Shown one piece after another: positions 14,730 to 49,346 of a stretch of DNA of 64,000 nt (its first letter is position 1; each line of letters opens with the position of its first letter). A program made the translations under genes and the position numbers. This DNA comes from Pseudovirgaria hyperparasitica (Eukaryota; Ascomycota; Dothideomycetes; Acrospermales; Acrospermaceae), in assembly GCF_010093815.1 (NCBI RefSeq), contig NW_022985566.1:324884-388883 (forward strand), read 5' to 3'. The notes beneath the pieces were generated by a model, which was not told where the DNA came from, did no database searches, and saw only the letters and a list, made by a program, of their open reading frames with translations.

Positions 14730-17700
14730 ATGGGTGTACCAAAGTTTTTTCGATGGATGTCGGAGAGATATCCGGCGATCTCACAGCTCATAGCTGAGAA
14801 TCGCATACCAGAGTTTGACTGTTTATACGTACGTCTTGCGATTGAAGAGGGACCCATATATGAAAGCGATCTAACGAAATATAGCTTGACATGAATGGTA
14901 TCATCCATAACTGTACTCACAAAGACTCCGATTCCCCTACTTTTAGAATGACGGAAGACAAGATGTTCATAGCCATTTTCAACTATATCGAACATTTGTT
15001 CGGGAAGATCAAACCGAAACAGCTCTTCTTCATGGCCATCGATGGCGTCGCGCCACGCGCAAAGATGAACCAGCAACGCGCCCGAAGATTCCGAACCGCC
15101 CTAGAGGTAGAGAAGGCCCGTGAGAAGGCCATTCAGGAAGGCGTGGAAATGCCTAGTGAAGATGCTTTCGATAGCAATTGCATCACTCCTGGCACAGAGT
15201 TCATGGCAAAGCTTACACAGCAACTCAAGTACTTCATTGCGAAGAAAGTGTCTGAGGATGTTGATTGGCGCGGTGTAGAAATAGTGCTGTCTGGACACGA
15301 GGTTCCTGGAGAAGGGGAACATAAGATCATGGAGTACATACGGCAGGCGAAATCCCAACCCGCATACGACCCCAATCGTAGGCATTGTCTTTATGGTTTG
15401 GACGCCGATTTGATCATGTTGGGTCTTCTCAGTCATGACCCTCATTTCTGCTTACTACGCGAGGAGGTCACCTTCGGACGCCAGTCAAAAGTCAAGTCGA
15501 AGGAGTTGGAACACCAAAACTTTTTCTTGATGCACCTATGCATGGTGCGCGAATATCTGGAACTGGAATTCCAGGAGCTCGGAGAGCCTGGCGCTTTGAG
15601 CTTTCCATTCGATATGGAGCGGGTCATTGATGATTTCATTCTTATGGCATTCTTTGTTGGAAACGACTTTCTGCCAAATCTTCCGCATCTTCACATAAAC
15701 GAGGGTGCTCTAGCGCTAATGTTTGGGGTTTACAAGACAGTCTTACCCAAGGCTGGTGGGTACATCAACGAAGGTGGCGTCATTCACCTAGAGAGGTTGC
15801 GAATCTTATTAGACGAATTGTCCCATGTTGAGTACAGATTTTTTGAGTCCGAGAACTCGGATGCCCAGTGGCTCAGAGGCAAACAGGGCAAGGAAGATGT
15901 GATGGATCGAACGAAGAGAAGAGGTCAACTAGTGATATCTACGCCCCAAAAGAAGATCTATGAGGCCGTCAAAGACTACTTGATGAATAACGACTCAAAA
16001 TCTCTATCACCCCCGTTGGATCTCGCGACATCTCTTCCTGCGAGAGATCGCAAATTTGTGGAAGAGCTTGCAGAGAGCCTGAATCTCCAATGGAAAACGG
16101 TTGAAAATACCGAAGGTGAACGCCATCTACAGTTATCATATCCTCCAAGACTTGTTTCCGAAGATCTCGACGATGACGATGATGATGAAATTGATGATGA
16201 AGAAGCGCAGTACGCCCTCGCCCGGGTTCTCAAGCGCTATGATAAAGCTAAGATAGAGGACCTCACCGGTGATGAAGCACAACAGGTCATGCAAAAGCAG
16301 TATGAGCAAAAGTTTGACAAATGGAAAGACGCGCACTATCAGTCGAAGTTTGGGTGGAGTCGTGACAACAAGGAAGAGCTGAGGAAGCTCACGGAAAATT
16401 ACGTCCAGGGTCTCCAATGGGTCCTATATTACTATTACCGTGGTGTCGCCTCATGGCCCTGGTTCTATGGCTTCCACTACGCGCCTATGATTTCTGATGT
16501 TAAGGAAGGTCTTGATGCTGATATGAACTTCAAGCTTGGACAGCCTTTCAGACCGTACCAGCAACTTATGGGGGTCTTGCCGGACAGAAGTAAGAAGATC
16601 GTGCCGGAAGTTTACCATGATTTGATGACCTCGAAAGAGTCACCAATCATTGATTTCTACCCGCGAGACTTTGAGCTCGATATGGACGGAAAGAAGATGG
16701 AGTGGGAGGCTGTAGTGAAGATTCCATTCATTGACGAGACTCGCCTGCTCAGTGCTATGGGCACCAAAGACCATTTGCTGACTGATGCCGAACGCAGTCG
16801 GAATGAATTTGGAGTCTCGCTTAAGTTCACATACGACGCAGATCTGGATTACGTGTATCCTTCCTCTCTCCCTGGAGTATTCCCGGACCTACTACATTGC
16901 CGTTGTGTAGAAAATATTTTTGAGTTACCTACCATGGATGGCCTTGAAGTCTATGTTGGACTGATGGACAACGTAAAACTTGGTGCTGCAGCTTTAGCTG
17001 GGTTTCCAAGTCTGAAAGTACTTGATTTTAACGGCCAGCTAGGTTTCCATGGAGTGACCGTATTTCAACAAGAGAGTCGGAACGAAAGTCAGGTTGTTAC
17101 TTTGTTAGGAACCGATGCCGCGGCAAATGTGAAGATTGCACAAGCCCGGCTAGGTAAGGCAGTGCATGTTGGCTACCCCTTCCTTCAAGAAGGGAAAGTC
17201 GTCAAAGTCTCGGATGAGTTATTCGATTACACTTTGTCTGAAGATGGTCTTGCACAAGTTGTACAGACACCACACGCCCAACACGATATTTCGAATTGGA
17301 AAAAGAAGGCTGATCGCATTGAGAGTGTTTACAGCAAGCGTTTTGGTGTGATTATAGGATCTGTCGAGTCTCTTGTTCACGTTGACATGCTGAGAGGGCT
17401 CAGGAAAACCGAGACAGGTGCGACCGTCAAGGAGTACGGTGAAGTCCTCGGTGTTGAAACAGACTATGCAACACAAACAATTGTCGACGAGGTCATAAGT
17501 GTTGATCAACGCTTCGTTGAGAGAAAAGCCTTACCTATCGCAGAAGAATACCCAGAAGGTTCAAAAGCATTTTTCTTGGGCGAGCTTGCCTATGGTAAAC
17601 CTCTCCAAGTCATTGGGCATGAAAACGAACGGGCTAGCATTTGGGTCCTTGTACCCGGAACACGCGAGCCTGAATTCGGTCGAGATGTGGTATCTCGGGT

Positions 17701-18994
17701 TGAGCGAACGGTACCCTATACCCCTTCATTTGCCGTAGCCAGATCATTGCACTTGAGCCCTCTTGTGTTGAGCAGACTCACTTCAGCGCTTTCCGTTGAA
17801 TCTGGTGGTGTACGGTTGAATCTGGGCTTAAACCTCAAATTCGAAGCAAAGAAGCTCAAAGTATTGGGCTATTCACGGCGCAGCGAACATGGCTGGGAAT
17901 TCAGCAATAAAGCCATCGAGTTGATCCAGCAATATATGATCAAGTTCCCAGAATTTATTGCTGGTCTGATGGCGAAGCCGAAGGGAGATGTTTACAAAGA
18001 TACAGACTTCTACCCAGAAGGAGAAGCTTTCAAAAAGATGAAAGAGATCGGGACCTGGCTGAAAGAACAGAATGCCAAGGGCTTCGAAAAGGTGCCCTTA
18101 GACGCACAACAGCTGGACTCGGATGCAGTCAAGCTCATTGAGCAGGCGGCGGACGGCATCATTCCAGCTTTGCCACAGCCGGTTCCGAAGAAATTGACTG
18201 CTGTACCAAGGAGTGCTCTCATCAAGCCCTCCGATGCCGAGGCTCAACTGGGGGTTCAACATTTCACTTTGGGTGATCGAGTTGTCTATCTCTTAGAGAC
18301 AGGCAGAGTTCCCATAGGACAGCGTGGTACTGTCATAGGCATTACGAAAGTCGCTCGTATCGACTACCTCGACGTTGTATTTGATACTACTTTCATGAGT
18401 GGAACAACTCTCGACCAGCGATGCTCTCCATTCAGAGGAGCTACGGTGCCTGCAAATGGGGTTCTCAACCTCACTGATAAGCAATTCGTTCTAGGAACTC
18501 AAGCTGGATCAGCTCGCAAACCTCAACCACCGGCCCAGCCTCAGGGTTATGGCATGCCATTGGGTCCAGGAGGTCGTGGACAGCTCAGGCCTGCGCCCGC
18601 GCCTCCAGCAATTACTGACTATCGCAGCGGCGTAGTCGGTCATGCGAATGGTCATGTTACAAATGGTTCAGCCCGTGGAGGAGGCCCCGCCGGGCGTGGC
18701 CAGACTGGGCAAATTCAAACCGAGCTACCATTCCGTGGACCTCCACAGAACCGCGGTGGGAACCAGGGGCGGGCTCGAGGTGGTCGTGGACGGGCCGGCA
18801 ATCGCGGTGGATACAGGGTGGTCGATATGGACAACGTCACGGAAGGTGTGGTGACGAACAATCCGAACTTCCAACCCCGAGCGTACAATAAGGTTCCACC
18901 ACCTAACAGCTTGAATGCGCCTGGTGGTCGTGGCCGTGGCAGGGGTGGACACAGAGGGAGAGGAGCGCCCAGAGGAAGACCTGCTGCCCAATAG
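14730..18994 (+). CDS. XRN1: 5'-3' exoribonuclease 1
   Basis: Two exons, 14730-14828 and 14885-18994, with a 56-nt GT-AG intron; 1402 aa. Exon 1 gives MGVPKFFRWMSERYPAISQL, the invariant Xrn N-terminus. The nuclease core follows with LDMNGIIHNC, GEGEHKIMEYIRQAKSQP and YGLDADLIMLGLLSHDPHF, which carry the acidic metal-binding residues. The Xrn1-specific PAZ/Tudor, winged-helix and SH3-like regions fill the middle. The tail from about 18500 is rich in RGG/GRG repeats, a common RNA-binding feature. The enzyme degrades decapped 5'-monophosphate mRNA in the cytoplasm. Length and the large C-terminal half mark it as Xrn1 rather than the nuclear Rat1. An acidic Asp/Glu stretch (DDDDDDEIDDEE) lies at about residue 455. 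Confidence 0.97.
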
Positions 18995-19313: not shown

Positions 19314-19971
19314 TCAATCAATCGGTCTACTCGTTTCTGCGTCTGGTCCACGCATGTAAGCATCAATCGCCGCACTGAATGCAGCAAAGCCAGCGCAGCC
19401 CAGCGCCGTAGCTTGGGGACCCGCCTTCATAGCCAGTGCACCGCCCGTCAGACATCCAGCACTTATGCCGTTCCATAGATCGTTTTTCGCGCGAACTTTC
19501 TCGATGGCGCACTCGGTGCCGGAGTAAATGCCACCAATCATCCCAAAATTCTTGGCCGACGACCACGATGCTCTACCCATCTCTTTTGCGCCCTGCCTCA
19601 GCTGTTGTCGGAGTGGTAGCTCTGCCATAGCCGCGGATTGTGGGGACGACATTGGAGTATCGTATCGCATCTAGGTTGTGAAAGTTAGCAGCTTCCTCTC
19701 GGGGATCAAAGGCAAGCGTGGTAGACGCACAGAAGACATGAACAGGCCGAACGCTCCACCGAGACCGAAACCCATCACACCTGACAAGACGGCCTTGAAT
19801 GGGCACGATTCCATCCCAGCCGTCATCTAGGGAGTATTAGCCATATGATCCCACGCATCGTCTTTGAAATGTTGGGGCATCGCGAACATATTTTATCATC
19901 ATCTGTTCCTGGTCTGATACACCTTGATTTGATTGCTGCCCTCCAGGCATGCCCATCCCAGGAAAGGCCAT
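19314..19971 (-). CDS. TIM22: Mitochondrial inner membrane translocase subunit Tim22
   Basis: Three exons: 19888-19971, 19731-19826 and 19314-19670; 178 aa, normal for Tim22. The spliced product starts MAFPGMGMPGGQQSNQ and includes MESCPFKAVLSGVMGFGLGG, then GRASWSSAKNFGMIGGIYSG and TECAIEKVRAKNDLWNGISA. These are the conserved Tim17/Tim22/Tim23-family membrane segments plus the Tim22-specific Cys pair. Tim22 forms the channel of the carrier translocase that inserts multi-pass metabolite carriers into the inner membrane. The first intron donor is the unusual GTTCGC; the second is GTGCGT with a normal CTAAC branch word. The gene is divergent from the acid-ceramidase-like gene (418-bp gap). Confidence 0.94.
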
Positions 19972-20336
19972 GGCGACGTGTGAGTAATACAGGTTGAAGT
20001 TGCAGAGGTAGAACGGTGTTTCGAGACTTTTCGGCGCTTGTTGTTGCCCTATCACCGAAGGATCGCCGAGATAAGCTTGTCGGCGCATGAGTCATGCACA
20101 TACATCTACCACCGTTCGTTTCGTTTCTCCTCTTCGCACTCACGCAAGTATTTACCAACATACAAGTCAGATACCGCAATACGATATTGTAACAGTCCAT
20201 TGATGTTCCAGCCACAGTCGACTCTCTGCCACCATGATTTTAACGCAATTTAGCGTGATCGTGGCGCTAGCACAGCCCTCCAGGCAACAATGATAGGATC
20301 AATTTAGCAATATGACTGCCTCTCACGGACCTACGA

Positions 20337-20389: not shown

Positions 20390-21769
20390 ATGGCTTCCAC
20401 AATTTGTTGCGATTCTGTTGAAATCGCCGGTTGTCCAGATGTCGCCGACGATAGCGCCCGCCGCCGCAAAGAGAGACAGATGCATCTCATAGATCATACA
20501 GTCCCCGCCGAGGGCACGTATATAAAATCAGTGGCTAGCGCGACGAAACCTCCGGTATACACGATCGATCTCTCCCTCCCTCCGTCTGAAAGATATATGC
20601 AACTTGCGACAGATTATAAACAGAAGATTCAAGGTCTTCCTGCACTTTTCGAGGATCTTGTCGCTGCGACACCTGTTCCTCTACTCTTGGTGACTTGGTT
20701 GTCACGGCTAGTCCTACGCAGACTGCATAGCAAAGAGCAGACAGAAGAGATACGAGGGATTTCAAAAATAACCGGCGTGGATATGTATCTTTGAGTAGCG
20801 TTCAACACTCTACTTGATCTCTTTATGGGATGTACAAGTGGTGGCATGAGAGTCTGGGACGAAGGAAGTGGAGGCCAGTCCGATGTCAAGCATACGAAGA
20901 TGCTACACTTCAGAACTTTGGACTGGGGTATGGATGCTTTGCGCGAAGTCATCGTCCAGCTCGAGTTTGTGGAACGGCCCGGTGGTCAAGTAGTAGCTAG
21001 AAGTATCACATATGTCGGGTTTGTTGGTGTTATAACAGGCATTCGGTGAGCTTGAGATACAGTTCAGTACTTGTTGCAGTCTCTAATGATGTCTAGAAAA
21101 TCTCTAAGTGTATCTCTAAACTTCCGCCCATATCACGACGACAAGACTCTAAAGGCCAACATTAGCTTCTACACTAATCAAGTTTTGGTTCTGCTCGGTC
21201 TGCGGCCGTCTATTGCATCACGACTACGAACCTACATCGTACCGGAGAAGCTTCACATCGAATCTTCTGGAGAAAGGACCGTTCCTACGCAAGCGACGCT
21301 GTCCGAGATCAGAGACGAACTTCCGAATGCCCCAACAACTGCTGCGTACATCATAATGTGCTCAGGTTCTGATACGACTGTGATGGAAAAAGATCACCGC
21401 AACGCTCAAGTATATACGTCGACGTCGTTCATAACTGCGACCAATCATGATGCGACGGATGAGTCAAATAAGTCCATACCTGTATTGAAAAACACCAAAC
21501 TAAATGTGGCCCCAGGGCTGCAAGATCTAATCGATGATTCACGAGATCGTAAAGCTTGTATTACTGATAAATGGAGAAAGGCTCTAAAGTCTTGCCGACG
21601 AAGGAACAGGACGGCCACAGAAGATAACTTCGCTGTAGATATGGGCCAACTTATTCGATGGGTCCAGACTTATCCCACTACGAACGACTCGACTCACTTC
21701 GCGTGCGTCATGGACCCAAGCGAAGGTGATATCGTGTGGGTGAAGCAGTTCGAGGCAAGCCTTGAGTAG
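20390..21769 (+). pseudogene. Acid ceramidase / NAAA-like amidase, interrupted by one in-frame TGA (possibly a split gene)
   Basis: Two exons, 20390-21045 and 21097-21769, joined over a GTGAGC..TAG intron. The frame is continuous for 443 codons except for one TGA at 20792-20794. Upstream: VYTIDLSLPPSERYMQLATD and SKEQTEEIRGISKITGVDMY, the NAAA-beta/acid-ceramidase alpha-subunit signature. Downstream: FNTLLDLFMGCTSGG with the nucleophile Cys, then FRTLDWGMDALREVIVQLEF, SLNFRPYH and TATNHDATDES, the conserved N-terminal-nucleophile core. Enzymes of this family hydrolyse N-acyl lipids after self-cleavage just before that Cys. The TGA sits 13 codons before the Cys, i.e. at the alpha/beta junction, and an ATG (20825) lies two codons before the Cys. 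It may be a pseudogene, a recent nonsense allele, a read-through case, a base error, or two separately translated subunits. Confidence 0.8.
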
Positions 21770-22237
21770 AGATTTCGGCTACGGCCTTTGGGACTGTAGA
21801 TGCGTTCAAGGCTTGTAAGGCCCATAATTCACATATCTCGCAAATGTAGATACGAAACGTTCGTCTAATAGAATGGGATGACTACATTGCTTAGATTCTA
21901 TGCTGCCTGCCGCAGATAAGCATATCTGCCAACAACGTACGTTGATCAATAAACAGGCCGATGATCGTGGAGGGCAAAGACTGATCAAGTAAGAAGAGAA
22001 CATGTATTGCATAATACACAATTGAATAGGAGGTGACACGAAATATAAGTGCGACAGCCACACCAAGAAGAAATGTGGCGCATTGATCTCGGGCTAAACT
22101 CGGATCTATGGATGTCCGATTTCAAATCCGCCACACTTCGAAAGTTCGCCTGGGCGGTTTCGAAACAATTATCCAGACCTTCTTATCAGGACTTTGGGTT
22201 TACTCCAGGTTGTCTCTGTATTTGCCCAAAGCTCGTT
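21770..22237. other. Intergenic spacer and CFD1 leader
   Basis: Holds the promoter and 5' leader of CFD1. The CFD1 frame stays open upstream to about 22049, including an ATG at 22072, but that extension shows no family resemblance. Confidence 0.45.
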
Positions 22238-23152
22238 ATGCCCCTTGAAAACGTCAAGAAGATTGTCCTTGTGCTTTCGGGCAAGGGCGGCGTTGGCAAA
22301 TCGAGCATCACCACACAACTCGCCCTAACGCTATCATCGCAAGGCCATTCAGTTGGTGTTCTTGACATTGATCTCACAGGCCCTTCTATCCCACGCTTCT
22401 TTGGTGTCGAGACTCTGAAAGTTAAGCAGGCGCCAGGCGGGTGGATACCCGTACCTATTCATGAAGCTTCGGATTCAGATGCGGACCCAAAGCGCGGTGC
22501 TTTATCATGCATGTCCTTGGGATTCATTCTTTCCAATCGCAATGACGCCGTAATCTGGCGTGGACCAAAGAAGACTGCTATGATACGTCAGTTCCTGGAG
22601 TCAGTTCTGTGGCCTCCAGGTCTCGAATATCTTCTCATAGATACACCACCAGGAACCTCTGACGAGCATATTTCGCTGCTTGAAACGCTACTCAAATCCG
22701 CTACACCTAGTCAACTTCCAGGCGCTGTTGTTGTCACTACACCACAGGCAGTTAGCATATCTGATGTCAAGAAAGAGCTTAATTTCTGCCGCAAACTCAA
22801 TATCAACGTTCTTGGTGTTGTAGAGAACATGGCCGGTTTTGTGTGCCCCAATTGCATGGAGTGCACACATGTCTTCAGCAAAGGAGGAGGTGAAGTCATG
22901 GCCCATGAGTTTGAAGTTCCCTTCCTGGCAAGCGTACCTATAGACCCTGCTTTTGTCATGCTCATCGAAGAGGGTATTGTGCCAGTCTATCCAGAAGGGA
23001 CGACAGTCGAAGGACAAGATGTCGGCACCGCACACGACAACGAGGTACAGTATCATCTCCTCGTTGAAAAGTATCAACGATGCTCGCTGTTCCCAATCTT
23101 CGATCGAATTGTCAAACAACTGGTTACCGTCATCCAAAGCGGGACCACTTGA
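22238..23152 (+). CDS. CFD1: Cytosolic Fe-S cluster assembly scaffold ATPase Cfd1 (NUBP2)
   Basis: Single exon, 304 aa with the start [20 protein letters not shown], matching the usual family N-terminus. The deviant Walker A is [10 protein letters not shown] at about residues 13-22. Switch regions follow ([26 protein letters not shown]). The C-terminal CPNCMEC cluster-binding cysteines are at about residues 205-211. Cfd1 pairs with Nbp35 to build 4Fe-4S clusters for cytosolic and nuclear apoproteins. It lacks the N-terminal four-Cys ferredoxin motif of Nbp35, which supports Cfd1. An in-frame ATG at 22072 would add 55 residues; I prefer 22238 because the extension is unlike the family. Confidence 0.93.
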
Positions 23153-26189: not shown

Positions 26190-29100
26190 ATGGCGGAGCG
26201 TGAAGATATTGACATTTCAGCTACTAACCACTCAAATGGCCTTGTGGCACAACAAGCTTCAGTCTTCGATACCGAGGTGAAGATCGAGCCTGGTATCAAT
26301 TCGGTTCGTCCTGACAATCTGGAGTCGACTGAACCGGCCCATACTGCAGCCCCAATCGCAAGTCACTATTCGCCTATCATCCCCTCGCGCAAAACTACGG
26401 TGAATTCGCAAGGCAGGAAACGTAAAGGTACGTTGATCTACAACGTCGATCCGACATTCACTAATCACACGAAGTTCCTTCCATGGACTCAGATAGTGCG
26501 GTCAGTGGAAGCGAAGATGAGAGCGACAACGACAGCGATTATGATGACGGGGATGAAGCCATCACTTACAACCCAGAAAGCCAAGAACTACCCAGAATTC
26601 CCACACTGCACCCGGCATTCAAATTAGCGGAGCAGTTGGCAGTGGATATCGTGGCTCCCTTCAAGGAATTAATCCAAAGCAGTGGCTGTGAAGACGATGA
26701 GACGAGACTACTTATGAGGGAAATCAGTGCCTGCGAGGATGTGAGGTATGGTGAAGCTGTCAAGATAGGCATTGTCGGAGACAGTGGTGTGGGCAAGTCA
26801 CATAATTCGATTGTCAAGATGAATTGCTTATACAGGGGCAGGAAAATCCTCTCTCATAAACTCACTGCTAGGCTGCGTCAGCTTGACACCACAGGTTTAT
26901 TGAACTGCTACCTCTCGCTACATGGTACTAACACAACTTTCAGGCCGATGACGGAGAAGCTTGCACATACGTGGTACAAGAATTTGTCCCAGTCCCACCA
27001 AAGCAAAAGGCTCCATTCGCTGCAGAAATCTACTGGAAAGGAAGGAAGATGCGGGAATCTGACCTGAAAAGCCATATTGATAGCTATTATCAGTTTTACA
27101 GGTGCAAAAAGGAAGCCATCGACGACGAGCGAGGTGAATCTGAAGAGGTTGAAGCTCGTACAGCAAAAGAAGTGTTCCTTGCCCTTTTCCAGGACAAGGA
27201 TGAATTCGCTGATGAGGAGTCGATGAAAGACTACCTGAGTACAGTAGACCCAACAGATTATGGCCAAGTTCTATCTCAGATGATCAAGTGGACGGATCAA
27301 GTCATCGCGAAATTGGGTTGTGATGGAGAGCCTTTGATAATCGAGGCATCGAATCTGGATGCGTTGTCAGAAAATATCTTACCTTACACGAAGACAGTCA
27401 CAGACTATCTTGTGGGAAGTCAACTCAAATGCTCACCATGGTCAATGGTCCGACTTGTCAAGTATGCCACATAATATCCTTGCTCCTTCAGTTGCTGACA
27501 TTCGTTGCAGGATAGGCGTACGATCTCCACTCCTAGCAGCTGGAGTCACAATTGCCGACCTTCCAGGTATCTCGCAATCAGATTGACCACAAATGTTCTC
27601 TAATCATTCCCAGGTATTTCCGATATAAATCGGACCCGTGTTAAGACCACACAAGCTTACCTGAAAAGCTGTGACTACTTGATTATAGTTGCCGATATCA
27701 AGAGAGCCGAGACCGACACGGCCACCCACTCCAACCTTATTGACGCTCATAGGAGGAGACGTGGAAAAAGTGTTATCATGGTGTGCACTCGCTCCGATGA
27801 CATAGGAGCAAAGCAAAATATCCCAATGTCTCCACAAGAGGAGGAGCAAGCAGAATATCTAAAGCGTCAGGAGATGTCAACCACGGCTAAGTTGAAAGAG
27901 ATTGGTAAGAACATACGCGCTAGTCGTGGAGATCGAGACTTGGTGAATTCGCTCTCCAGGAAAAGGGAGAAGCTGACAGTAAAGAGCAAGATGTACAAAG
28001 CTCGACAAACCCAGGAACGTATCCTCATTCGAAACAGAAAGGTTTCTACAGGTTTAAAGAAGAAGTATCTTGAGCTTACCAAAGATGAATATCCCCTACC
28101 AGTCTTCTGTGTGAGCAACAAATTATACACAGCTCACTTGATCGGTATTCCTCGCGATGAGCCCGCGATTCTGACAGTGGAGAACACGAATATTCCAAGG
28201 ATGGTTGAGTATATATACAACCTTCCAGCGACACGAAAGTTAGCTGCGCTGGAACACCATTGCCAAGTGACCCTGTGCACGCTATTCTGTACAGTAGAGA
28301 TGGCCTCCACGATCACCAAAATCCAGAGAAAGGAGCATCTCGAAAGATTGATTCTTCAGTCCCAACAGGCGGCTCTTATCGAGGTAGATACTATTTTTAG
28401 CGACTTCAACCAGAGAGAGGTATGCGCTCTGGTCTCCAAGTTGACAAACTTTGAACAGCCGTGGATAAAGCGAGCTGCGGTGAAATGTGGCAGGTGGGAG
28501 AGTTTTGGTGCAGCTTCTCACCGCGCCTTGTGCCGAAAATATGGGATTCACAAAACGAAGAAGCTGGGCCCAAAGGACCTCAACAAGGAGCTTTTGATGG
28601 TAGTTTCGGATGATGCAGAGGTACCATTCAACAGCTTGATCAATGCATGCGAAGGACTACTTGCGACTCTTGACAGCACACTGGAGACAGTCCTAGAGAA
28701 GATGCGCTGTACCATAAACGAGGATCAAGCGTCGACACTTACACCAGTTCAGGCTTTCTTTGGAAATCTGAGACGACGCCAGACTGAACTTCAGGTGCGT
28801 TGCATGTATGCAATCAGGGCTATGAGGAAGTCTCTCGGCACTGTCAAGATCGATGCGCTTCAAGACAGCTCCGACGCATCTTATCTCGCAACAGCAATGA
28901 AGAAGGTATACGAGCGTGCCGCCGCGATTGGCTTTAGAGATTGCGAAAAGGGTGTTACTATACACAGGAAACGATGCGACGTCTTGAGCAATGACATATG
29001 CCAGCCTGATGGAATCTTCATGTTTGTGAAAGACCAGACTATGGTCCATTGTGAAGCTGTGGTCGAAACGCGGAGAGTAGCTCTCCAGAAGGATATTGAA

Positions 29101-29274
29101 ACAATCTTTGCCAGTATCCAGCACGACTTTAGTTCAATTTGCGCTACTGATGTTGAGGAATCCCCAGCCTCCAAAGAGCTTCAGAGGAAGCTTCGTGAAC
29201 TGGTGCCCAAAGCAAGAGAGGAGTTCATTTCGCCGGTCAAAGGCTATCTTGAAGAATGCCGCAAGGTCAAGTGA
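26190..29274 (+). CDS. Large P-loop GTPase, SLIP-GC/dynamin-like, copy 1
   Basis: Six exons: 26190-26427, 26493-26792, 26842-26894, 26944-27461, 27511-27566 and 27614-29274; 941 aa. G1 is GDSGVGKSSLINSLLG at about residue 180, split by intron 2. That intron needs a GC donor (GCAAGT) and an AG acceptor to give a canonical loop. The G2-like segment is ADDGEACTYVVQEF. G3 is IADLPGISDINRTR at about 386. G4-like is CTRSDD at about 447. The C-terminal 450 residues are helical with no transmembrane segment or PH domain. The N-terminus is acidic with a basic GRKRK signal. It resembles fungal proteins usually labelled nuclear GTPase SLIP-GC; cellular role unknown. It is the upstream member of a tandem pair with the gene at 30283-33509. 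Confidence 0.88.
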
Positions 29275-30282: not shown

Positions 30283-33200
30283 ATGATTGACAGTCAGTGT
30301 GAGCTAGTTCAAGCGACTTCAACCACTCGGCCTGTCGATGTGGAGAGATTCGACTCTGTGTTGTTAGATCAGACTATGCTGGACACACGGCCCCGGATGA
30401 CGAGCGAACAATCCTTGCTAGGCCATTCGAGACCCATGTACCCAGAATCAACCACAATGAACCCTGATCAGAACAACAGCCTGAAGCGGAAAGGTATTTA
30501 ACAGTGGAGGTTCTTCAAGCAAGTGCTAAGTTCTGTAGGGTGCCAGATAGACATTGAAAGTACAGGGAACAACGACGGAGATCTCGAATCAGACGACTCT
30601 GACGATGAGTGCAATGCAAGTTACGTACCAGACAGAGTAGAACTCCCGCAGGCGCCAAACTACCATCCAAGCTTTGCAAAAGCGATGGAAAGTCTGAACA
30701 AAGTACCGGAACACTTCCTGAATGCCATCAAGAGCAGTAGCCCTGACGGCGAGGAAGGCTCATTGCTCACGAAGAGAGTCTTGGATGACTCAAAGATCAT
30801 CTTTCCCAGTAGCCGACGTATTGGCTTGCTTGGTCGCAGTGGCGCTGGTACTCAGGACTTCACTCTCTCGTGCATCCTCTTGCTGACTCGTCATAGGTAA
30901 ATCGTCGCTTATCAACTCGATTCTAGGGAAAGAAGTCGCTATGATAGTGCGTGTATGTTAAAAGCCATGATTATCCAGCTAACATTGTCCAGGGGTCGAG
31001 TGGTGGAGCATGCACCCCATTCCCCATCGAGTATCATCCATTGCGCCACAATCAAGTGCAGGCATTTCAAGCGGAGGTTGAATACCTCACAAAGTCTGAG
31101 GGCACCAAGATGGTCAAAGGATGGGCGCGGAACGCGTACCAGTACCTCGATTCGAAGGAGAATAAGGCCTCAGATCAAGACAAAGGCGGTGATGATCAGG
31201 GATTTGAAAAGGACAAGCTGGGTAGCACCGCATTGAACTCTCTGCTTACAGTGTTTGGTCATCACGCGGAATTCGCTACGGAAAAATCCGCCAAGGTGTT
31301 TCTCAAGTCACAAAAGTCTGGCGACGACCAAGCGCTGCGGAAAATCATCACGGAATGGGTATCTTCTATTTACCAGCAGTTGATGTCAGACAAAAATCCC
31401 AGGAGTCTCTATGCATCCGATTCTGAAAACCTGGCCAATCAACTCCAGTCTTTGATTGCTTACGGCCGTTCATGTGAGTGCAAAGACCAGGCTGGGAAGT
31501 ACTGGCCGTTCGTTCACGTAGTAAGGTACATAGAAAGCTCCTGTAGTCCGTGTCGTAGTCTGGGCTAACTGTACAGGGTATCATTTGATTCAAAGATTCT
31601 ACAAGAGGGTATGATCATTGTCGACCTCCCAGGTACGCCAGGTCAACGGGATGCGCAAGACGTAGTCGACTACTAACGGAAATCCTTCAGGTCTATCTGA
31701 TATCAACATGACGCGGACGAATGCAACAAAAGCGTACCTGGGCAAATGCGACAAACTTATAGTCGTTGGCAAAATAGACCGCATTGTGGATGATGAGGAA
31801 GTTCAGAGATATCTCATTACAGCACATCACCATTTGTCGCGAACGAAAAGGGGTGTGATGTGTGTTCCCACTGCCACGGATGATTTCTGCGCAGGAACAA
31901 ACTTCGCATTCGATATGAAGCTGAATGACGACCAAGTGGTTGAGCTAAAGCTAGCCGACATCCAGATTCAGTATCTAACAGACAAGCATACAGAGATGCT
32001 CACATCTTTACAGCCAGGCAAGCTTCACCGGCGGGAACTCAAACTACACAAAGATCGACTCAAGAAAGTCCAGTAAGTGAATCATTTCCTGGGCTAGGTG
32101 AGAATTTCACTGACAAATCAGATCACAAATAGCGAAGGCCAAATTGAGGTGTGTGTGCCAATGACCAGCATCTCGGATAGAGTACTTATCATTCATGTAG
32201 TAAAGAGGAGTATCAGATCACGATCCGAAACGACAGGGTGGTATCAGAGCTGATTGCAAAGTATGCAAGATTGGCAAATGGGCAGGATCTTTTGGTATTT
32301 CCGGTTTCTAATCGCATATACGCGGAATACCTGAAGGCATTATGGGAACGCAATTCGCCCGTCAAATTAACTCCAACAGGAACCGGCGTGCCAGCTCTTC
32401 GCAAATTCCTGTACGGGATCGCGTCTGCTGGCAAATTTGAGGCACTAAATCATCAATGCTTTGTGTTGGGCAATTTGATAAGGACATGCGAGCTCTCATC
32501 GTCCCTTTCGAAGATCAAGAAGCAAGAGAGACTGGAAGTTCTCGTCAAAGAAAGCAAAGAAAAGTCGTTGGCAGAGCTCCATGACCGGTTCAAGTTGCTA
32601 CGAGAGAATGAGGTCTCGGGCCTATGTAAAGTGATGAAGACTGAAGACAGCGCTATGCGGGCGTGTGCGCAAGCTCTCTTGGATACGTGGGCTAAATTGA
32701 AGGCGCCCACCCATGCAGCCTGGTGTCGCCACTGGGGAGCTTGGAAGCTCGATGGCGATCAGAAGGACTGGAATGTCTACCTCCAGGAACCCATCAAGAA
32801 GGTACTGGAGACACAGTTTGATACTTTGGAATCGGCTTGCCTTGACGGCTCGGACTTCCTTGGCTCCACGCTCTCACAGATCCTCATCGGATATGATGGA
32901 ATGATCCAGCAAATCCGAAATCACCCGTCCACCGTCATGAAAGAATCTCTCGCGCGTTTCCTGTACAACACCGAGCAGCGAGAAGCAGGTATCCACAACA
33001 TGATTGATAGCACACTCAACGTGCTGCGCCACTCCCTGGAGACAATTGAGCAGAGAACCTTCCTCTCCAGTGCGGACTCCTACTTCACGGAATTCATCAA
33101 CCCGATCTATGAGGAATGCCAAAACGCCTATGCAACTCCAGGGGTCAAGAAGTCTCCAAAGGGTGCAAAAGTAGTCGTAAAGGAGGTGAAGGCAAAGAAC

Positions 33201-33509
33201 AAGCACCAAGTCCGTTGTGAGATTCTCACAAGCAGGATCTGCTCGCACAATACACTCTACCACCACATATGCACCAAAAGACTACAGCCCGCACTCCAGG
33301 CAGCTGTGCAAACAGCCGAGGAGACGATGAAGACCAAGATAGAGTCTTTATATGCTGATATATACCAGGATTTGCAATTCATATTCGAAAAGGACGACGA
33401 CAACGACCCTGAAACGATCAAGCTCCGACAGGCCGTTCGGGATGTGCTCGGTGTTGCTAGCAGCGATCTGGACAACGCTGTGGCGTTCTTGAAGGAATGC
33501 AAGCCTTGA
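30283..33509 (+). CDS. Large P-loop GTPase, SLIP-GC/dynamin-like, copy 2
   Basis: Eight exons: 30283-30493, 30539-30847, 30897-30946, 30993-31525, 31577-31632, 31691-32072, 32122-32152 and 32208-33509; 957 aa. G1 is GRSGAGKSSLINSILG, split by an intron at the same place and phase as in copy 1 but with a GT donor. The G2-like segment is GSSGGACTPFPIEYH, G3 is IVDLPGLSDINMTR, and the G4-like VVGKIDRI lacks the usual Asn/Thr-Lys. Five introns match copy 1 in position and phase; two more flank a 31-nt exon. The donor of the last intron was chosen (32153) because it keeps the frame into EYQITIRNDR; other nearby GT sites fail. The C-terminal helical region aligns along its length with copy 1. Function unknown. 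Confidence 0.86.
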
Positions 33510-49232: not shown

Positions 49233-49346
49233 ATGACAAGAGTGGGACTTGAACCCACGCAGATTTCTCTATGCGAATACTAAAGACTTCTGGGAAGCCT
49301 AAGACGTATCTTGAGTCGCACGCCTTAACCACTCGGCCATCTTGCC
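49233..49346 (-). tRNA. tRNA-Leu(CAA) with intron
   Basis: On the minus strand the sequence folds as a type II tRNA. Acceptor stem GGCAAGA pairs with TCTTGTC. The D arm is ATGGCCGAGTGGTTAAGGC. Anticodon stem TGCGA/TCGCA encloses a CT-CAA-G loop. A variable arm AGA-GAAA-TCT is present, and the T arm is GTGGG-TTCAAGT-CCCAC. An intron of about 32 nt (about 49278-49309) interrupts the anticodon loop one base after the anticodon, the standard position. Anticodon CAA reads UUG. Introns in tRNA-Leu(CAA) are common in fungi. Discriminator base A also fits leucine. Confidence 0.95.

What the first reader, a model, noticed from the sequence alone, without database searches (positions are those of the whole stretch)
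20390..21769. Acid-ceramidase-like gene split by a TGA exactly at the alpha/beta subunit junction
The frame is continuous across 443 codons and one well-placed intron, with a single TGA at 20792-20794 where homologs, as I recall them, have Leu (MYLLVAFN). The stop falls 13 codons before the autocatalytic Cys. An ATG at 20825 encodes Met-Gly-Cys, so the downstream frame alone would make almost exactly the mature beta subunit, and the upstream frame (134 codons) the alpha subunit. The rest of the catalytic core shows no sign of decay. This could be a new nonsense allele, a read-through enzyme, a base error, or a naturally split two-chain enzyme that bypasses self-cleavage.
Basis: partly seen in the sequence, partly recalled or inferred. 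Interest (0 to 1): 0.75.

Follow-up and report, generated by a model that had tools for sequence, protein, structure and literature searches.

The report
Acid-ceramidase-like gene with one nonsense codon
A fungal genome carries an acid-ceramidase-like gene that looks intact except for one early stop codon, most likely a recently broken (or, less likely, mis-sequenced) copy and not a new kind of two-part enzyme.

Summary
A frame runs from ATG 20390 to TAG 21769 over one 51-nt intron and is broken only by TGA 20792-20794. The upstream piece is an NAAA-beta domain (PF15508, E 3.5e-14). With X at the stop, the alignment to solved acid ceramidase runs through it (5u81, E 1.4e-6). No second copy was found in the 35-Mb genome.

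The split-enzyme reading is weak. The TGA lies 13 codons before the Cys. Ten codons (20795-20824) would be in neither chain, yet still match the family (0 of 11,022 control decapeptides score as well). They correspond to the end of the helix that reaches the cleavage site (PMC5915598 passages). Readthrough lacks support: UGA-GU, not UGA-CU(A) (PMC4207609 passages), and no unusual fold. No well-formed intron removes the TGA and keeps the Cys.

Best reading: a young loss-of-function allele; alkaline and neutral ceramidase genes are also present. Base error and splicing-out stay open. No fungal relatives, reads or RNA were available.

The parts
20390..20794 (+). upstream open frame, 134 codons plus TGA; NAAA-beta (alpha-subunit) domain at residues 53-111
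   Evidence: Pfam PF15508 E 3.5e-14
20792..20794 (+). in-frame TGA, the only interruption; takes the place of mammalian residue 130
   Evidence: alignment with X at the stop; numbering counted by hand back from residue 143
20795..20824 (+). ten codons between TGA and the next ATG; would be in neither chain if split, yet family-like
   Evidence: 0 of 11,022 decapeptides score as high
20825..21045 (+). start of the beta-like part: ATG-Gly-Cys (candidate nucleophile at 20831-20833), Arg and Asp of the active site
   Evidence: no Pfam model matches this piece on its own
21046..21096 (+). 51-nt intron, GTGAGC to TCTAG
   Evidence: sequence; the family match continues a few residues across it
21097..21769 (+). 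exon 2, rest of the beta-like part, ends TAG
   Evidence: on its own no Pfam model and no significant solved relative; its end shows only sub-threshold stretches to acid ceramidase and NAAA
20785..20838 (+). best-looking candidate intron that would remove the TGA (54 nt, GTATCT to TACAAG); it would also remove the Cys
   Evidence: candidate only, no transcript data

Best explanation
This is an acid-ceramidase/NAAA-like gene, the only copy found, of what looks like a filamentous fungus, that has recently taken one nonsense mutation in the sequenced strain or its close lineage. The message, if made, would give a truncated alpha-like chain without the nucleophile, and would probably be degraded by nonsense-mediated decay because a splice junction lies about 250 nt after the stop (inferred). 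No active enzyme would be made. Shown: one stop, an otherwise open frame, no second copy found, a family match through the stop. Inferred: that the base is real, that it is recent, that function is lost.
For: One TGA in a frame otherwise open over 443 codons counting both stops. In-frame codon scores exceed both shifted frames before and after the stop. The family match runs through the stop with no gap there, and Cys, Arg and Asp are in place. The ten codons after the stop still look like the family. No second copy found (these searches score only their best candidates). Other ceramidases are present: an alkaline one (two matched stretches; the TGA inside one of them lies in an intron as I read) and a neutral one (675-codon open frame), so loss could be tolerated. 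Acid ceramidase is reported as rare in fungi (PMC13161914, passages). Rough age bound: with nonsense 3.7% of substitutions, or 13% disabling events if indels are counted at a rate I assumed, about 79 or 22 neutral events would bring a second break with 95% chance.
Against: No reads, transcripts or sister strains could be examined, so neither a polymorphism nor recency is shown. Two of the three pieces score below all 26 long ORFs of the window in codon usage, and only 15 of 314 windows have so high a RIP index, which could mean longer relaxation than assumed, or simply low expression. The gene could also be intact if the base is wrong.
Confidence: 0.6

Rival explanations
1. Base error in the assembly; the real gene is intact.
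For: A single substitution-type oddity in an otherwise open gene is what an isolated error looks like.
Against: No indel-type damage nearby and no run longer than three T at the site. In the few genes looked at, no other unexplained break: the XRN1 ORF (14885-18991) and the ParA/NUBPL-type ORF (22049-23149) are open over their matched domains, and the DUF1688 gene goes on in a neighbouring frame as over an intron (read by eye). The sample is small.
Confidence: 0.16
2. The stop is spliced out: a 54-nt intron 20785-20838 gives an in-frame protein without the stop.
For: GT to AG, length like the gene's other intron (51 nt), in frame, a YTRAY match at 20814, product of 424 codons without a stop.
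Against: The acceptor ends AAG, an unusual acceptor (recalled). It would delete 18 codons including the nucleophile Cys, so the product could not be a working Ntn hydrolase. Six in-frame candidates keep the Cys: two GT-AG (donor GTCTTC) and four GC-AG (GCAGAC or GCAAAG). None of the six has a branch match, and each removes the EEIRGIS segment that aligns with the family.
Confidence: 0.08
3. Translational readthrough of UGA makes some full-length proenzyme.
For: Coding character and family match on both sides; UGA is the leakiest stop (recalled).
Against: The context is UGA-GUA, not the UGA-CU(A) motif that drives readthrough in fungi (PMC4207609, passages); the same paper notes that some readthrough genes lack that motif. 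No unusual RNA fold in the 100 nt after the stop (z 0.07; 97 of 200 shuffles as stable). TGA is also the commonest stop after the window's long ORFs (18 of 24 checked), so a general recoding is unlikely; some of these may be stops in introns.
Confidence: 0.07
4. A natural split enzyme: alpha from the first frame, beta re-initiated at ATG 20825, with self-cleavage bypassed.
For: ATG 20825 stands two codons before the Cys; neither frame holds a further stop or frameshift.
Against: Ten family-like codons would be untranslated. They correspond to residues 131-140, the end of helix alpha-5 that reaches the cleavage site, and autocleavage is intramolecular (PMC5915598, passages). Met-Gly-Cys still lacks a free N-terminal Cys. 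Re-initiation after 134 codons is inefficient in eukaryotes (recalled). Position -3 of this ATG is T, though so is that of ATG 20390.
Confidence: 0.05

Closest known systems
Acid ceramidase (ASAH1), solved as 5u81, 5u84, 5u7z, 6mhm
   Same: Alpha domain, junction segment and the TS after the nucleophile place; best match E 1.4e-6 (5u81)
   Different: Broken by TGA. The residue aligned to Thr141, said to be conserved in all acid ceramidases, is Met here, and Tyr137 aligns to Leu. About 52 residues lie before the domain.
N-acylethanolamine-hydrolyzing acid amidase (NAAA), solved as 6dy3, 6dxw and others
   Same: Its alpha chain is the best match to the upstream frame alone (6dy3_A E 1.2e-5); Pfam PF15508
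   Different: Beta matches are weak (best E 0.014, 0.057 for exon 1b alone); substrate cannot be assigned
UGA-CU(A) readthrough genes of fungi (PMC4207609)
   Same: An in-frame UGA followed by more coding sequence
   Different: Context UGA-GU; there readthrough adds a C-terminal targeting extension, here it would add most of an enzyme

Membership tests
Acid ceramidase / NAAA family | alpha-subunit (NAAA-beta, PF15508) domain | tested here: met
   E 3.5e-14, 53.4 bits against cut-off 27
Acid ceramidase / NAAA family | beta-subunit domain | tested here: inconclusive
   Neither beta piece matches a Pfam or NCBIfam model, and PF02275 finds nothing in the genome; the 5u81 alignment covers the beta part only to about residue 215 of the chain
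Acid ceramidase / NAAA family | nucleophile Cys at the junction | tested here: met
   CTS aligns to ATS of 5u81, where the paper gives Ala143 for Cys143
Acid ceramidase / NAAA family | Arg159 and Asp162 equivalents | tested here: met
   HFRTLDW aligns to HGRNLDY of NAAA beta (6dy3_B; also 6dy2_B), equated with Arg159 and Asp162 by recall; the 5u81 and 5u84 alignments are gapped and out of register here
Acid ceramidase / NAAA family | Asn320 and Arg333 equivalents | tested here: inconclusive
   A TNHD and a WRKA in exon 2 look right, but the alignment over WRKA is a stretch of -1.2 bits and Asn is assigned by recall
Acid ceramidase / NAAA family | one uninterrupted proenzyme frame | tested here: not met
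   TGA 20792-20794
Acid ceramidase / NAAA family | self-cleavage and amide hydrolysis | not testable with these tools
   needs protein
Fungal UGA-CU(A) readthrough | UGA followed by CU(A) | tested here: not met
   UGA-GUA against PMC4207609
Two-chain split enzyme | the two frames together cover the functional protein | tested here: not met
   ten family-like codons, residues 131-140, in neither frame
Two-chain split enzyme | a separate start of translation or transcription for the second frame | not testable with these tools
   no RNA data

The most novel reading that the evidence does not exclude
The gene is kept as two cistrons on one message: an alpha-like chain that ends in the segment of helix alpha-5, and a beta-like chain re-initiated at Met-Gly-Cys, which together give an Ntn amidase that needs little or no self-cleavage.
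Probability: 0.04. Interest if true: 0.8.

Novelty: new member of a known kind. Interest (0 to 1): 0.2.

Why it matters
As a broken single copy it is an ordinary case of gene loss in an enzyme family that fungi keep patchily. It would matter more only if the stop proved fixed with both halves under selection, since no self-cleaving enzyme of this family is known to me (recalled, not searched in full) to be made as two separate chains.

Tried and rejected
Second copy as donor or backup: none found in the own genome by protein, DNA or PF15508; PF02275 also found nothing. Relatives: three scans of viral contigs gave 0 relatives. The one genome-contig scan gave one locus, L009, from a bacterial assembly (20 residues, 65% identity); its 407-codon frame looks like a HemW-type radical-SAM protein by recall, so I dropped it as a chance match. 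No metagenome scan was available. NCBIfam: 0 of 3 pieces matched. Exon 2 alone found only an oxysterol-binding protein at E 0.14, taken as chance.

RIP as the cause: the gene's composite index is negative (-0.23), although high for the window (15 of 314 overlapping windows reach it). The rDNA copy at G000:C40 looks TA-rich and mutated, so RIP may act in this genome, but this gene shows no strong sign of it.

Altered genetic code: judged unlikely. TGA follows 18 of the 24 long ORFs checked (24 of the 26 listed, two shorter ones not included). These are stop-to-stop frames, so some of the stops may lie in introns; the one after the DUF1688 ORF probably does. A TGA inside the alkaline ceramidase match lies in what I read as an ordinary intron. 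The bacterial promoter and terminator scan is of no use for a fungus. Structure prediction was not run.

Papers: six text searches. Four asked about the enzyme in fungi; no title or abstract start in their listings names a fungal acid ceramidase with a stop or a split. Searches returned 0 papers. Passages only were seen of PMC5915598, PMC4207609 and PMC13161914; of all others only the listing.

Full report
What is there. The frame from ATG 20390 is open for 134 codons, meets TGA at 20792-20794, and continues in the same frame to a GT at 21046; a 51-nt intron (21046-21096) leads into exon 2, which ends at TAG 21767-21769. No other stop lies in the spliced frame. The codon score is higher in frame than in either shifted frame for all three pieces (alpha 0.005 against -0.136 and -0.197; exon 1b -0.011 against -0.144 and -0.324; exon 2 0.018 against -0.111 and -0.135). 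Alpha and exon 1b are below all 26 long ORFs of the window (0.010 to 0.168), and exon 2 is near the bottom. The ORFs of 250 codons or more were also the training set, apart from this gene, which raises their scores. I report it as a mild point against strong, steady constraint.

What it is. The upstream piece matches Pfam NAAA-beta (PF15508; E 3.5e-14) and the NAAA alpha chain 6dy3_A (E 1.2e-5). The two beta pieces match no Pfam model and on their own reach only E 0.057 (exon 1b, 6dy2_B) and a chance-like 0.14 (exon 2). With the exons joined and X at the stop, the best solved relative is an acid ceramidase, 5u81 (E 1.4e-6). The alignment passes the stop without a gap there: GVDMYL-X-VAFNTLLDLFMGCTS lies on EIPLGEIISFNIFYELFTMATS, whose A is the mutated Cys143. 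The four printed alignments that cover the stop have Ile at that place. Arg and Asp align with NAAA beta (HFRTLDW on HGRNLDY), while the 5u81 and 5u84 alignments are out of register there. Asn320 and Arg333 equivalents are likely but not shown by a significant alignment.

Where the stop falls. Counting back from Cys143 on that alignment, the TGA takes the place of residue 130; the next ten codons are 131-140, and ATG 20825 is 141. Passages of PMC5915598 say that helix alpha-5 reaches up to the cleavage site, that its last turn (135-140) bends away on activation, that autocleavage is intramolecular, and that the free N terminus of Cys143 possibly helps to form the oxyanion hole. That residue 130 itself lies in this helix is my inference. 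A split protein would lose the segment from both chains. Yet the ten codons score 26 and 20 (BLOSUM62) against the decapeptides of 5u81 and 5u84, and 0 of 11,022 decapeptides from 24 window ORFs reach either value. The register was taken from the alignment, which used the same letters. They were therefore translated until recently, or still are. This is the strongest result against a long-standing split.

Ways round the stop. Readthrough: the context UGA-GUA is not UGA-CU(A) (PMC4207609, passages; the paper adds that some readthrough genes lack the motif), and the following 100 nt fold no better than shuffles (z 0.07, 97 of 200 as stable). Splicing: one search listed 231 pairs, GT or GC to AG, of 40-250 nt that remove the TGA (donors from 20560, acceptors to 20959). 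Six of the in-frame ones keep the Cys: two GT-AG with donor GTCTTC and four GC-AG with GCAGAC or GCAAAG. None has a branch match, and each removes the EEIRGIS segment. The best-looking one by donor and length (20785-20838) removes the Cys. Recoding: TGA follows 18 of 24 long ORFs checked, with the caveat that some of these stops may be intronic.

Genome setting. The window lies within an 846-kb contig of a 35.0-Mb, 59-contig assembly. No second copy was found. An alkaline ceramidase gene (two matched stretches; its TGA lies in an intron as I read) and a neutral ceramidase gene are present. PMC13161914 (passages) states that acid ceramidase is rare in fungi and found mainly in pathogenic Pezizomycotina and Mortierellomycota. 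A fungus with other ceramidases could plausibly lose it (inference). No call names the organism; that it is a filamentous ascomycete is my inference from gene content, short introns and the mutated rDNA.

Verdict. A real, single in-frame TGA in the assembly, in an otherwise open acid-ceramidase-like gene. Most likely a young nonsense allele (0.6), next a base error (0.16), then splicing-out (0.08), readthrough (0.07) and a split enzyme (0.05). Reads, RNA and fungal relatives were out of reach (for relatives), so recency and fixation are not shown. On re-checking the calls I corrected the residue at the stop (Ile), the splice count (six, not two, keep the Cys) and the weight of the TGA count; the odds did not need to change.

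Noticed in passing
L005:1261-1860 (G000:C40): The one 5.8S rRNA match reported in the assembly (39 of 965 candidates scored) lies in an rDNA copy that is TA-rich and looks mutated, as repeat-induced point mutation would leave it.
   Followed up: no
window 27604-29271 and 32181-33506: Two nearby ORFs carry the same domain of unknown function, DUF7605, possibly a local duplication.
   Followed up: no
window 19314-20088, minus strand: A TIM22-like gene (named by recall from the ORFs) lies divergently upstream of the ceramidase-like gene, so the two may share a promoter region.
   Followed up: no
window 49234-49346, minus strand: A tRNA match of 113 nt, longer than a plain tRNA, so probably with an intron.
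   Followed up: no
window 20813-20827: Residues aligned to Tyr137 and Thr141 of acid ceramidase are Leu and Met here, so the fungal enzyme may differ in its cleavage chemistry.
   Followed up: partly
L008 (G000:C1): A neutral ceramidase gene with a 675-codon open frame, although PMC13161914 calls this type rare among non-flagellated fungi.
   Followed up: no
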